This document shows, one piece after another, positions 16,267 to 46,986 of a stretch of DNA of 64,000 nt (position 1 is the stretch's first letter; every line of letters begins with the position of its first letter). The DNA is from Pyrobaculum sp. WP30. Its GTDB lineage: Archaea; Thermoproteota; Thermoprotei; Thermoproteales; Thermoproteaceae. Under the pieces are notes generated by a model. The model was not told where the DNA came from, searched no databases, and saw only the letters and a list, made by a program, of their open reading frames with translations. The stretch lies in NCBI GenBank assembly GCA_001189275.1, contig CP012158.1, positions 682,001 through 746,000 of the forward strand, written 5' to 3'. Position numbers and translations under genes: made by a program.

Positions 16267-16932
16267 TTATTGTTGCGCCTCAGCAGGCGCCGCCGCCTCG
16301 GGTCTTGTGGGCGGTTTGATCTTGTACTCGTCGCTGTACCGCATAGTCGCCGGCGTGATCCTCACCTCTATGCCGTAGATGCCCGGCTTCAGAAGCACGT
16401 GGACCACCGCCCGCCTCACCCGCTGTTTGGCGTCGTAGCCGATCTTGTAGAGCTTCCCGAAGGTCTGCTTCTCGAACTTAGCCCTCTCCGTAGACAGCTT
16501 GCCGCTCACCACGATCTCAAAGCCCTTAGCCCCAGCCTCCGTCAACTGCCTTATGGCCACAAACATGACCCGTCTAAACCTGACGCCCTTAGCCATGGCG
16601 TTGGCTATACGGTACGCCACAACCTTGGGGAACATCTCGGGCGCCTCGATCTTGGAGACGTCTATCACGTCTATCTGCGGGTTCTCCACGCCCAGCTTAT
16701 TGGTAAGGATGTTACTAATCTCCTTCACGATGGCGCCTTTCCTGCCGATGATCCTAGAAGGTCTCTCCGCGTATATCACGATGCGCGTGCCCAGGGGAGT
16801 CTTCAAAATCTCAGAGTCGATGTATCCATACTTACTCAGCCTATACTCCAGAAACTCCTTAATCATCCACTTCTTCTTGTTCTCCTCCAGGATTTTCTTA
16901 TACACAGGCAACCTCCTCTGAGCAGTAGACAT
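16267..16932 (-). CDS. rps3: Ribosomal protein uS3
   Basis: About 221 residues from the ATG at 16930-16932 (MSTAQRRLPVYKKILEENKK). It contains the KH domain with RPSRIIGRKGAIVKEI and the C-terminal S3 domain (GVRFRRVMFVAIRQLTEAGA, GIEVRITPA). An alanine-rich tail ends the protein. The frame is open for another 22 codons upstream, but a TATA-like ATTTAAAT lies about 25 nt before this ATG (16953-16962), so the inner start is preferred. S3 lines the mRNA entry channel. A separate promoter here splits S3-L29-Rpp29 from L22, with an sRNA gene in the gap. Confidence 0.95.
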   Translation of the reverse strand: MSTAQRRLPVYKKILEENKKKWMIKEFLEYRLSKYGYIDSEILKTPLGTRIVIYAERPSRIIGRKGAIVKEISNILTNKLGVENPQIDVIDVSKIEAPEMFPKVVAYRIANAMAKGVRFRRVMFVAIRQLTEAGAKGFEIVVSGKLSTERAKFEKQTFGKLYKIGYDAKQRVRRAVVHVLLKPGIYGIEVRITPATMRYSDEYKIKPPTRPEAAAPAEAQQ

Positions 16933-17015
16933 CGCCACCCCCATCAACACCATATTTAAATTTTTCCGAGATACGCAGTCCTCTAAACATAAAAACACGC
17001 AACATCTAAAGAGAC

Positions 17016-17070
17016 GAATGATGGAAATTCCTTTATGGAGAGAGATGACCGGTTCACCCCTTGCTGATGC
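17016..17070 (+). ncRNA. C/D-box sRNA guiding 16S rRNA methylation (predicted G916 and position 940)
   Basis: Read on the plus strand between rps3 and rpl22: C box ATGATGG (17018-17024), D' box TGGA (17036-17039), C' box AGATGA (17043-17048) and D box CTGA (17064-17067). A TATA-like CATAAAAAC at 16988-16996 lies about 25 nt before it. The D' guide AATTCCTTTA (17026-17035) pairs 10/10 with spliced 16S TAAAGGAATT, across the position-919 intron junction. The D guide pairs 11/11 with CAAGGGGTGAA in 16S (42298-42308). By the N+5 rule the targets are G41529 and G42302. Confidence 0.85.
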
Positions 17071-17074
17071 TTGC

Positions 17075-29867: not shown

Positions 29868-29921
29868 TCAGTCCGTCGCGAGCCTATCATTACTCAGTAC
29901 TTTGATACCCATCATCACACA
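29865..29921 (-). ncRNA. C/D-box sRNA, predicted guide for 23S rRNA U47618 (about E. coli U2593)
   Basis: On the minus strand: C box GTGATGA (29912-29918), guide TGGGTATCAAAGTA, D' box CTGA, spacer GTA, C' ATGATA, guide GGCTCGCGACGGA, D box CTGA (29868-29871). All four boxes are near-perfect. The D guide segment CTCGCGACGG is the exact complement of CCGTCGCGAG in 23S at 47615-47624; the N+5 rule points to U47618. The C box overlaps the TGA stop of pop5, so the sRNA is probably processed from that transcript. Confidence 0.9.
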
Positions 29922-31715: not shown

Positions 31716-31744
31716 TTTTTAACCCTCTTCTTCTGTTTTATCCA

Positions 31745-31800
31745 CCGCGACGGGTTGCCGAGAGCCGCCTCCGGCGGCGCCGTGACGCAACCTGACGTGT
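31745..31800 (+). ncRNA. Possible H/ACA-like guide RNA or structured hairpin
   Basis: GGTTGC (31753-31758) pairs with GCAACC (31787-31792) and an inner GCCGCC (31764-31769) pairs with GGCGGC (31773-31778). The asymmetric inner loop has CGAGA on one side and a GTGAC-containing strand on the other, which could form a kink-turn. ATTTTTAAC (31715-31723) could be its TATA box, about 25 nt upstream. A transcription terminator for rpl15e is an alternative. Confidence 0.35.
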
Positions 31801-40628: not shown

Positions 40629-41169
40629 GGGCGGCCTTGCGGCCGTCCGAAACCGGTTGATCCTGCCGGACCCGACCGCTATCGGGGTAGGGCTAAGCCA
40701 TGCGAGTCGCGCGCCCGGGGGCGCCCGGGAGCGGCGCACGGCTCAGTAACACGTGCCCAACCTACCCTCGGGAGGGGGACACCCCCGGGAAACTGGGGCC
40801 AATCCCCCATAGGGGAAGGGCGCTGGAAGGCCCCCTCCCCGAAAGGACGGCGGCCGATCCGCCGCCGCCCGCCCGAGGATGGGGGCACGGCCCATCAGGT
40901 AGTTGGCGGGTTAAAGGCCCGCCAAGCCGAAGACGGGTAGGGGCGGTGAGAGCCGCGAGCCCCGAGATCGGCACTGAGACAAGGGCCGAGGCCCTACGGG
41001 GTGCAGCAGGCGCGAATACTCCGCAATGCGGGCAACCGCGACGGGGCTACCCCGAGTGCCGGGCGAAGAGCCCGGCTTTTGCCCGGTCTAAAACGCCGGG
41101 AGAATAAGCGGGGGGCAAGTCTGGTGTCAGCCGCCGCGGTAATACCAGCTCCGCGAGTGGTCGGGGTGT

Positions 41170-41200
<31 letters not shown>

Positions 41201-41344
41201 GGCAAGTCGCTCCTGAAATCCCAGGGCTCAACCCTGGGGCGGGGGGCGATACTGCCGGGCTAGGGGGCGGAAGAGGCCGCCGGTACTCCGGGGGTAGGGG
41301 CGAAATCCGTTAATCCCCGGAGGACCACCAGTGGCGAAAGCGGG

Positions 41345-41384
<40 letters not shown>

Positions 41385-41532
41385 GAGCAAAGGGGATTAG
41401 ATACCCCTGTAGTCCCGGCCGTAAACGATGCGGGCTAGCTGTCGGCTGGGCTTAGGGCCCGGCCGGTGGCGAAGGGAAACCGTTAAGCCCGCCGCCTGGG
41501 GAGTACGGCCGCAAGGCTGAAACTTAAAGGAA

Positions 41533-42280
41533 AGGGAGGTTGGGAGCTGGGCGCGAAGGCTTAAATAGCTCCCCGGCCCTCTAGGGCATGGTGACGCTCA
41601 ACGGGGAGCTGGCCTACTTAGCAGGAGCTTTACGAGACGGGACTGTGGTGATTAGAAGCGGGTACGACTACGAGGTCAGGCTTGCGCAGAAGAGCCGCGA
41701 GTGGCTTGAGGTGCTAAACGACCTCTTTGCGAGGATCTTCGGGAGAAGCGGCTCCATATACCGCGAGAAGAGGAGAGGCGCGTCCGGCGCCGTGAGGGCA
41801 TATTACGTCCTGAGGATATTCGACAAGAGAGTAGTCGGCGAGCTGATAAGGCTCTTCGACATAGCTACGCCGCAGACCAGGTGGGGAACCCCCGACATAA
41901 TAAGGCGCGCAGGCGCAGACATTGTGAAGCACTACGTGAGGGGGTTCTTCGACGCCGAAGGCGGCTTGCCCAAAGACCCCACCCGCGCCAAACAGCACTA
42001 CATCTCCTTCGACCAGGCAAACCTCGACGCCCTGGCCTTCATCAGAAGCCAACTGGCGCAGATGGGCTACCGCCCTACGAGGATCACCAAGACGGGTAGC
42101 GTGTGGCAGTTCAGGCTGACGCGGAGGGCCGACATTATGAGATTTAAAAACGAAATCGGGTCGTGGCACCCCGAAAAGAAGCGGAGGCTCGACCTCCTGT
42201 ACGCCTCCCTGGGACGACAAGACCTCCTTTTCCCCTCCAGTCCTCTTCATCCATCCGCCCAGCTCCCGCCTCCCCCTGAA
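41533..42280 (+). other. 16S rRNA intron at position 919
   Basis: A 748-nt insertion between AAACTTAAAGGAA and TTGGCGGGG. Its ends pair: AGGGAGG-TTGGGAGCTGGGCG with CGCCCAGCTCCC-GCCTCCCCCT. It encodes an endonuclease (41588 onward). The exact cut could shift by up to three bases because GAA occurs at both ends. Confidence 0.9.
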
Positions 42281-42307
42281 TTGGCGGGGGGGCACCACAA
42301 GGGGTGA
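41588..42307 (+). CDS. LAGLIDADG homing endonuclease in the 16S position-919 intron
   Basis: An open frame of 239 codons with two LAGLIDADG motifs: LAYLAGALRDGTVVI near residue 10 and HYVRGFFDAEGGL near residue 120. The linker and second half (YRPTRITKTGSVWQFRLTRR) fit a monomeric endonuclease that would cut intronless 16S genes and spread the intron. A TATA-like CTTAAATAG (41560-41568) lies about 24 nt before the ATG. The stop (TGA at 42305-42307) is in the 3' exon, 27 nt beyond the splice site. In the circular intron the frame would instead end REVGSWARRLK and a TAG. Confidence 0.88.
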   Translation: MVTLNGELAYLAGALRDGTVVIRSGYDYEVRLAQKSREWLEVLNDLFARIFGRSGSIYREKRRGASGAVRAYYVLRIFDKRVVGELIRLFDIATPQTRWGTPDIIRRAGADIVKHYVRGFFDAEGGLPKDPTRAKQHYISFDQANLDALAFIRSQLAQMGYRPTRITKTGSVWQFRLTRRADIMRFKNEIGSWHPEKKRRLDLLYASLGRQDLLFPSSPLHPSAQLPPPPELAGGHHKG

Positions 42308-42824
42308 AGCTTGCGGCTTAATTGGAGTCAACGCCGGAAACCTCACCCGGGGCGACAGCAGGATGAAGGCCAGGCTAACGACCTTGCCGGACGAGCTGAG
42401 AGGAGGTGCATGGCCGTCGTCAGCTCGTGCCGTGAGGTGTCCGGTTAACCCGTACCCACCACGGGGCCGAAAGTCCGGCAACGAGCGAGACCCCCACCCC
42501 TAGTTGCTACCCGGCCCTTCGGGGCCGGAGGCACACTAGGGGGACTGCCGGCGTAAGCCGGAGGAAGGAGGGGGCCACGGCAGGTCAGTATGCCCCAAAA
42601 CCCCGGGGCTGCACGCGAGCTGCAATGGCGGGGACAGCGGGACCCGACCCCGAAAGGGGGAGGCAATCCCGTAAACCCCGCCCCAGTAGGGATCGAGGGC
42701 TGCAACTCGCCCTCGTGAACGTGGAATCCCTAGTAACCGCGTGTCACCAACGCGCGGTGAATACGTCCCTGCCCCTTAGGCGGGCCGCTGCGGCTTGTTT
42801 TTAAGATCGGTCTTTCTCCCTCCT

Positions 42825-43579
<755 letters not shown>

Positions 43580-45668: not shown

Positions 45669-46331
45669 ACTCGGCCATCCGCAGGCCGCAAGCTTTAAAC
45701 CTGCATCCCATCCTGCAACATGGAGTGCGAGAGAGACGAGGCGTTTGCCTACCTCGTAGGTGCCTTGGGAGACGGCACCCTCTACGCGACAAGCGACGGC
45801 CACTACGTCGTCGAGTACGGCCAGAAAGATGTGAGGTGGCTTAGAGTCATAGAGCAAAAAGCCAGCTGTCTAGGCTACAGAACCCACATAGTTAGGCACA
45901 GGTCCAGCTACTGGAAAGCCAAGATATACAGCAAGGAGCTCTACACAGCCCTCTCAGAGGCCAAGTCTCGGCTACACGACGTGGTGAGCTCGCTAGATGC
46001 GAGATTGTTTGCGGCGTATCTAAGAGGACTCTTCGACGCAGAGGGCACAATAACGCGCCACTACAGAAAAACTGTGAGAATCAGGATAGCACAGAAAGAC
46101 ACGCAACTCTTATCAATCATAGCAAGACGGCTAAGAGAAATGGGAATTGAATGCACCGACCCATTCCCAAGCGATAAACACAGCACATACATCATCCAGA
46201 TACCACACAGGTCAGTAAAACAGTTCATGGACTTAATAGGCACGGAACACCCCTCCAAAAAAGAGAAGTTCACCTCCCTCTTTCCCTAACCCTCATCTTT
46301 ATCCCAGCGGCCTGCGGAGGCCGGGGCCCAG
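45669..46331 (+). other. 23S rRNA intron near position 1913
   Basis: About 663 nt inserted between GGCCGGGGGTAA and CTCTGACCCTCTTAAGG. The terminal helix CCGCAGGCCGC / GCGGCCTGCGG is perfect. The boundaries were set by restoring the universal GTAACTCTGACC; a shift of one or a few bases is possible. It holds an intact endonuclease gene. Confidence 0.85.
45720..46289 (+). CDS. LAGLIDADG homing endonuclease in the 23S intron near 1913
   Basis: A compact 189-residue endonuclease with clear double motifs: FAYLVGALGDGTLYA near residue 9 and AYLRGLFDAEGTI near residue 98. Each motif is followed by a beta-sheet saddle (GHYVVEYGQKDVRWLRVIEQ, KTVRIRIAQKDTQLLSIIAR). It ends HPSKKEKFTSLFP within the intron. 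A TATA-like GCTTTAAACC (45692-45701) is about 22 nt before the ATG. Size and motif spacing are typical of archaeal rRNA-intron enzymes. Of the four intron genes it is the only intact one with both start and stop inside its intron. Confidence 0.93.
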   Translation: MECERDEAFAYLVGALGDGTLYATSDGHYVVEYGQKDVRWLRVIEQKASCLGYRTHIVRHRSSYWKAKIYSKELYTALSEAKSRLHDVVSSLDARLFAAYLRGLFDAEGTITRHYRKTVRIRIAQKDTQLLSIIARRLREMGIECTDPFPSDKHSTYIIQIPHRSVKQFMDLIGTEHPSKKEKFTSLFP

Positions 46332-46372
46332 CTCTGACCCTCTTAAGGTAGCCAAATGCCTTGCCGGGTAAG

Positions 46373-46986
46373 GGCGGTTGCGTGGGGGAAGGCTTAAAGC
46401 CAACCCCCAGCTGCGTCGATGTGGACATCGACCAGATTTCTGCCTATTTACTTGGGTGAATAGTTGGCGACGGAGGGCTCTACAAGCTCAGCTACAGCGG
46501 AGGCCGGACGGAATACCGCGTAGTCGTAACGCAGAAAGACTTGTCTACAGCGACGCGGTGTCTAGTGCCGTTGTTTAAGACTGTAGCATGCTCAACGTGA
46601 CCTCCAAAGTGCGCCTCGTCGCAGGCAGTACTAGGGCGGAGGTCAGAATCTCCAGCAAGAGACTATATGAGCACTTCACCTCGCTCTTAACAAGACTGCC
46701 CGAGTTCACCGAGAGGGAGAGGCGGCTGTTCATAGCCGGCTTCTACATGGCTGAAGGCGAAAAAAGCAGGAGACGCGTCAGGATGTGGAACAAAGACATA
46801 CAGTTGCTCAAGCTGATAGGCAGCTGGCTGAGAGAATTCGGCATAGAGAAGATCAGCATATACCTCGACGACAAGCGGCACGGAGTCTACGTCTTAGAGA
46901 TCCCCAGCAGACACCGGCATCTGTTCTTCAGGGGGTTGGAAACACCCTGTGATCTTCACTAACCTCCACGCGCCGCCCCCCGAGAG
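46373..46986 (+). other. 23S rRNA intron near position 1954
   Basis: About 614 nt inserted between CCTTGCCGGGTAAG and TTCCGGCGTGCATGAATGG. The ends form a helix: GGCGGTTGCGTGGGGG with CCTCCACGCGCCGCC. The exact cut may move by two bases because AG is repeated. It contains a broken endonuclease gene. Confidence 0.85.
46421..46962 (+). pseudogene. Decayed LAGLIDADG endonuclease in the 23S intron near 1954
   Basis: From GTG at 46421 the frame reads DIDQISAYLLG, then a TGA (46457-46459), then IVGDGGLYKLSYSGGRTEYR, so a stop lies in the middle of the first LAGLIDADG motif. Near 46575-46590 the reading moves to another frame: MLNVTSKVRLVAGSTRAEVR, then the second motif RLFIAGFYMAEGEKSRRRVR, ending at 46962. 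Two lesions make an active enzyme unlikely. The TATA-like GGCTTAAAGC upstream (46391-46400) is kept, as in the intact relatives. Confidence 0.9.

What the first reader, a model, noticed from the sequence alone, without database searches (positions are those of the whole stretch)
17016..17070. sRNA guide that pairs only with spliced 16S rRNA, across the 919 intron junction
The D' guide (17026-17035) matches 10/10 bases of TAAAGGAA|TT, where the bar is the exon junction between 41532 and 42281. The D guide matches 11 bases starting 18 nt into the 3' exon. Methylation by this sRNP would therefore either require prior splicing or compete with intron folding, and the guide could act as an RNA chaperone or checkpoint for splicing. 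The sRNA also has its own TATA box.
Basis: partly seen in the sequence, partly recalled or inferred. Interest (0 to 1): 0.8.

Follow-up and report, generated by a model that had tools for sequence, protein, structure and literature searches.

The report
Ordinary rRNA methylation guide, intron-independent
This is a genus-wide archaeal box C/D small RNA that guides methylation of 16S ribosomal RNA; it spans an intron junction here only because a mobile intron happens to sit inside its target in this one genome, since relatives without the intron carry the same guide.

Summary
A box C/D sRNA lies at about 17016-17069 (+). Its D' guide matches 10/10 bases across the spliced 919 junction of 16S, and its D guide matches 11/11 bases in the 3' exon.

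The interpretation mostly fails. The sRNA occurs in all 11 Pyrobaculum genomes held. Eight of the other ten have an uninterrupted 16S at position 919; two of them, G004 and G005, have exactly the same D' guide. The intron core was found in only 2 of 45 genomes of the order; the second, G013, has no such D' guide. Guide and intron are therefore uncoupled, and this is a normal double-guide rRNA methylation sRNA.

"Pairs only with spliced 16S" is too strong: 8 of 10 pairs form with the 5' exon alone (-8.3 against -10.6 kcal/mol), and the D site is entirely exonic. The D' methylation site is more likely A41527 (E. coli A914) than G41529, because the only D'-box GA conserved in all 11 genomes is at 17040-17041.

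What survives is narrow. The D' target overlaps the exon strand of the predicted bulge-helix-bulge splice motif, so sRNP and splicing endonuclease should exclude each other here. That is testable but unproven.

The parts
16989..16995 (+). TATA-like A/T block (ATAAAAA), 23-29 nt upstream of the C box
   Evidence: A/T-rich columns at -28 to -23 conserved in 10 of 11 species
17014..17071 (+). box C/D sRNA gene (approximate ends)
   Evidence: conserved core in all 11 Pyrobaculum genomes
17018..17024 (+). C box ATGATGG
   Evidence: RTGATGG/T in 10 of 11 genomes
17026..17035 (+). D' guide; pairs with 41525-41532 + 42281-42282
   Evidence: exact complement; ATTCCTTTA in 10 of 11 genomes
17038..17041 (+). 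D' box GAGA (GNGA); 17033 is N+5 and faces A41527
   Evidence: G, G and A at 17038, 17040 and 17041 invariant in 11 genomes; the alternative TGGA at 17036-17039 is not conserved
17045..17051 (+). C' box ATGACCG
   Evidence: RTGACCG in 10 of 11 genomes
17052..17063 (+). D guide (12 nt); 17053-17063 pairs with 42298-42308, N+5 faces G42302
   Evidence: 11/11 complement, invariant TTCACCCCTTG in 11 genomes
17064..17067 (+). D box CTGA
   Evidence: invariant
41525..41532 (+). 5'-exon part of the D' target; also the exon strand of the predicted BHB
   Evidence: fold of 41480-42340 pairs AGG 41528-41530 with the intron 3' end and leaves AAA 41531-41533 as the bulge
41533..42280 (+). 16S intron at E. 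coli position 919, with LAGLIDADG ORF from 41588
   Evidence: locus 919 is a known insertion site (PMC4496867)
42281..42282 (+). 3'-exon part of the D' target (UU)
42298..42308 (+). D target in the 3' exon

Best explanation
It is an ordinary double-guide archaeal box C/D sRNA. Assembled with L7Ae, Nop5 and fibrillarin, it guides 2'-O-methylation of two nearby 16S nucleotides: A41527 (E. coli A914) through the D' guide and G42302 (about E. coli 940) through the D guide, which are 27 nt apart in mature rRNA. The guide is older than, or at least independent of, the 919 intron. In this lineage a mobile LAGLIDADG intron inserted into the conserved target site, so the junction falls inside the D' duplex by coincidence of two elements that both favour conserved rRNA. 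Shown: boxes, guides, conservation, absence of the intron from relatives that keep the guide. Inferred: transcription, sRNP assembly, methylation, and that D' methylation here happens either after splicing or before the intron folds.
For: sRNA in 11/11 Pyrobaculum genomes with invariant D guide and D box. 16S contiguous at 919 in eight of them. G004 and G005 have exactly this genome's D' guide (AAATTCCTTTATG) and no intron. sRNAs with both guides also occur in other genera of the order, e.g. L060-L065. In Thermoproteus-like (g2) and g5 genomes a D guide of the same type is joined to other D' guides, the normal guide turnover of C/D families. Intron core in 2/45 genomes, the second without the D' guide. 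About half of archaeal C/D sRNAs are double guides with targets within 100 nt (PMC4644070).
Against: No RNA or methylation data for this genome were available. The D' box deviates from CUGA, so D' activity and the exact methylated base are uncertain. In this genome position 17036 mismatches U41524, which weakens the D' duplex relative to most relatives (-10.6 against -13.8 kcal/mol), although G004 and G005 share that mismatch without having the intron.
Confidence: 0.9

Rival explanations
1. Methylation and splicing compete at this site: the sRNP D' guide and the splicing endonuclease need the same exon strand, so the order of events in pre-16S is constrained in this genome as a side effect of the insertion. 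(Compatible with the best explanation.)
For: D' target 41525-41532 coincides with the central helix and 5' bulge of the predicted BHB. Eight D' pairs form with unspliced RNA, so binding before splicing is possible and would open the BHB.
Against: RNA folding at 37 C only; no kinetic or in vivo data; RNA helicases or early splicing could make it irrelevant. The predicted methyl sites are not the nucleotides whose 2'-OH is used in cleavage (41532 and 42280), so no direct chemical block.
Confidence: 0.3
2. The sRNA is a dedicated splicing chaperone or checkpoint: it bridges 5' and 3' exons across the 748-nt intron, or marks only spliced 16S.
For: The two guides lie on opposite sides of the intron. 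Chaperone roles have been proposed for C/D sRNAs whose targets are distant in sequence (PMC4644070).
Against: Same sRNA and same guide in intronless relatives. The other intron-bearing genome lacks the D' guide. No sequence feature of the guide is specific to this genome. Bridging through D' would unfold the BHB rather than help it.
Confidence: 0.04
3. Chance match: no functional sRNA here.
For: No Rfam family matches above threshold.
Against: Conserved boxes and guides in 11 genomes; none of 200 shuffles matched.
Confidence: 0.01

Closest known systems
Archaeal double-guide box C/D methylation sRNAs of Pyrobaculum (110 families in Lui et al. 2018, as cited in PMC7994747; P. calidifontis set in PMC4644070)
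   Same: Box order, 12-nt D guide, two guides hitting 16S within 100 nt, conserved across the genus
   Different: Nothing in kind; in this genome one target is interrupted by an intron. I could not read Lui et al. to assign the family number.
Nanoarchaeum equitans sR17/sR15, proposed C/D chaperones on 16S helices 28 and 30 (PMC4644070)
   Same: Guides pair around helix 28 of 16S; two sites are held together by one sRNA
   Different: Those sites are distant in mature rRNA; here they are 27 nt apart and become distant (775 nt) only in the unspliced precursor of this one genome
pre-tRNA-Trp intron C/D RNA (sR50; summarised in PMC7994747)
   Same: Links C/D methylation with archaeal intron splicing
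   Different: There the guide is the intron and is tied to it; here the guide is a separate gene and independent of the intron
Thermoproteales 16S introns at locus 919 (PMC4496867)
   Same: Same insertion site, BHB motif, homing endonuclease ORF
   Different: A plain member; the paper's main text has no mention of methylation

Membership tests
Archaeal box C/D methylation guide sRNA | C (RUGAUGA-like) and D (CUGA) boxes about 40 nt apart | tested here: met
   ATGATGG 17018-17024, CTGA 17064-17067, conserved
Archaeal box C/D methylation guide sRNA | Internal D' and C' boxes | tested here: met
   GNGA and RTGACCG conserved but degenerate
Archaeal box C/D methylation guide sRNA | Guide of at least 9 Watson-Crick pairs covering the N+5 site | tested here: met
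   D 11 bp, D' 10 bp; criterion from PMC4644070
Archaeal box C/D methylation guide sRNA | Expressed as a stable ~50-60 nt RNA bound by L7Ae, Nop5 and fibrillarin | not testable with these tools
   No RNA data
Splicing-dependent (junction-specific) guide | Requires the spliced product to pair | tested here: not met
   8 of 10 D' pairs and all D pairs form on unspliced RNA
Splicing-dependent (junction-specific) guide | Occurs together with the intron | tested here: not met
   Guide without intron in 8 genomes; intron without guide in G013
Archaeal BHB intron at 16S locus 919 | Bulge-helix-bulge at the junctions and a homing endonuclease ORF | tested here: met
   AAA bulge flanked by AGG/CCU and GGGAGG/CCUCCC helices; LAGLIDADG_3 E 3.6e-13

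The most novel reading that the evidence does not exclude
In this genome the insertion of the 919 intron has turned a housekeeping guide into a de facto order-sensor: D' binding and BHB splicing exclude each other, so A914 methylation reports whether pre-16S was spliced before or after sRNP binding, and sRNP abundance can modulate splicing.
Probability: 0.12. Interest if true: 0.5.

Novelty: new member of a known kind. Interest (0 to 1): 0.22.

Why it matters
As a gene it is routine. The pair of genomes (same guide with and without an intron inside its target) is a natural comparison for a question I did not find addressed in the papers I could search: whether archaeal pre-rRNA splicing and sRNA-guided methylation occur in a fixed order. 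Pyrobaculum relatives provide the intronless control.

Tried and rejected
Splicing chaperone or checkpoint: rejected on phylogenetic distribution. Chance match: rejected by conservation and shuffling. Rfam assignment: none. The key Pyrobaculum papers (Lui 2018; Bernick 2012) are not held, so the family number could not be given. A genome contigs pattern scan returned only 3 loci, fewer than the whole-genome search, and was not used for counts. Folding the sRNA alone gave no stable structure (z 1.28), which I do not count against a C/D sRNA.

Full report
What is there. The window belongs to a Pyrobaculum-type genome of 1,993,257 bases. The genus is inferred from relatives: one of the matched same-genus genomes has the length of Pyrobaculum oguniense TE7, which was also found by name. 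Between the genes for ribosomal proteins L22 (17075-17632, -) and S3 (16267-16998, -) lies, on the + strand, a box C/D sRNA: C ATGATGG 17018-17024, D' guide 17026-17035, D' box, C' ATGACCG 17045-17051, D guide 17052-17063, D CTGA 17064-17067. A TATA-like block 23-28 nt upstream of the C box recurs in 10 of 11 species.

The 16S gene (40650-42837) carries an intron at 41533-42280, E. coli position 919, with a LAGLIDADG protein and a predicted bulge-helix-bulge. Locus 919 is a recognised insertion site in Pyrobaculum and other Thermoproteales (PMC4496867). Joined at 41532|42281, the exons read TAAAGGAATT, the exact complement of the D' guide; the D guide is the exact complement of 42298-42308. 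Shuffled 16S sequences never gave an 11-nt D match to any C/D-spaced candidate in the window (0 in 200).

The intron connection is coincidental. All 11 genomes of the genus contain the sRNA, with TTCACCCCTTG-CTGA invariant and ATTCCTTTA in ten. In eight of the ten other genomes the 16S aligns through position 919 without a break; the remaining two, G007 and G008, are fragmented assemblies for which no 16S match reaching the junction was found. G004 and G005 have letter for letter this genome's D' guide and no intron. Elsewhere in the order, sRNAs with both guides occur in further genera (L060-L065), while Thermoproteus-like (g2) and g5 genomes combine a D guide of the same type with unrelated D' guides. 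The 5' core of this intron was found in 2 of 45 genomes of the order; the other one, G013, has no TGATG-N(0-4)-ATTCCTTTA element, and its related sRNA has a different D' guide (L067). The guide exists without the intron, and the intron without the guide.

Pairing is not restricted to spliced RNA. Eight of the ten D' pairs, including the pair at the likely methylation site, involve only the 5' exon: predicted -8.3 kcal/mol unspliced against -10.6 spliced; in most relatives the guide runs 12 pairs to the D' box, about -13.5 to -13.8. At 85 C the predicted stable core is the same 7 pairs in both. The D site is wholly exonic.

Which base is methylated. Across 11 genomes the invariant GA is at 17040-17041, giving a D' box GNGA (GAGA, GTGA, GCGA) at 17038-17041; in most relatives the D' duplex then reaches exactly to the box. 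By the N+5 rule (PMC4644070) the target is A41527 (E. coli A914, numbering by the well-known 907-926 primer site, from my own knowledge). Both predictions are untested.

What remains interesting. The 5'-exon half of the D' target is the exon strand of the BHB central helix and bulge. If the BHB forms first, the D' site is hidden; if the sRNP binds first, the BHB cannot form. The D and D' sites, 27 nt apart in mature 16S, are 775 nt apart in the precursor. This is an inference from structure prediction at 37 C, made without RNA data. It predicts an order of events; it does not show a checkpoint. The predicted methyl groups do not fall on the nucleotides whose 2'-OH takes part in cleavage.

Base rate. 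From figures in PMC7994747 (88 C/D sRNAs in P. calidifontis; 56% of Pyrobaculum guides with rRNA targets) there would be roughly 100 guide targets on about 4.4 kb of rRNA. A 10-nt duplex with at least 2 nt on either side of a given junction is then expected about 0.16 times per junction. This is my estimate. With four rRNA insertions seen here (two in 16S, two in 23S), finding one guide across one junction is not surprising.

Verdict. A real, conserved, ordinary double-guide C/D sRNA; the junction-spanning is an accident of one mobile intron. Interest is low, apart from a clean natural comparison for splicing versus methylation order.

Noticed in passing
window 42445-42475 (16S, about E. coli 1093): A second 16S insertion of 24 nt (AACCCGTACCCACCACGGGGCCGA, hairpin-like) is absent from three sister genomes; probably a short hairpin-only intron at the known locus 1093 (PMC4496867).
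   Followed up: partly
window 45672-46318 and 46372-46985 (23S): Two 23S insertions of about 645 and 612 nt relative to sister genomes, probably BHB introns.
   Followed up: partly
window about 29868-29918, - strand: Another C/D-like sRNA candidate (GTGATGATGGGTATCAAAGTACTGAGTAATGATAGGCTCGCGACGGACTGA) with a 10-nt D-guide match to 23S.
   Followed up: no
window 31741-31800: Rfam Pyrobac-1 RNA, 52.4 bits.
   Followed up: no
L045 and L106 (genome G013): A roughly 180-nt intron at 919, too short for a homing endonuclease, shares an identical 31-nt stretch across the 5' junction (CTTAAAGGAAAGGGAGGTTGGGAGCTGGGCG) with the window's 748-nt intron although the genome is of another family, suggesting lateral spread.
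   Followed up: partly
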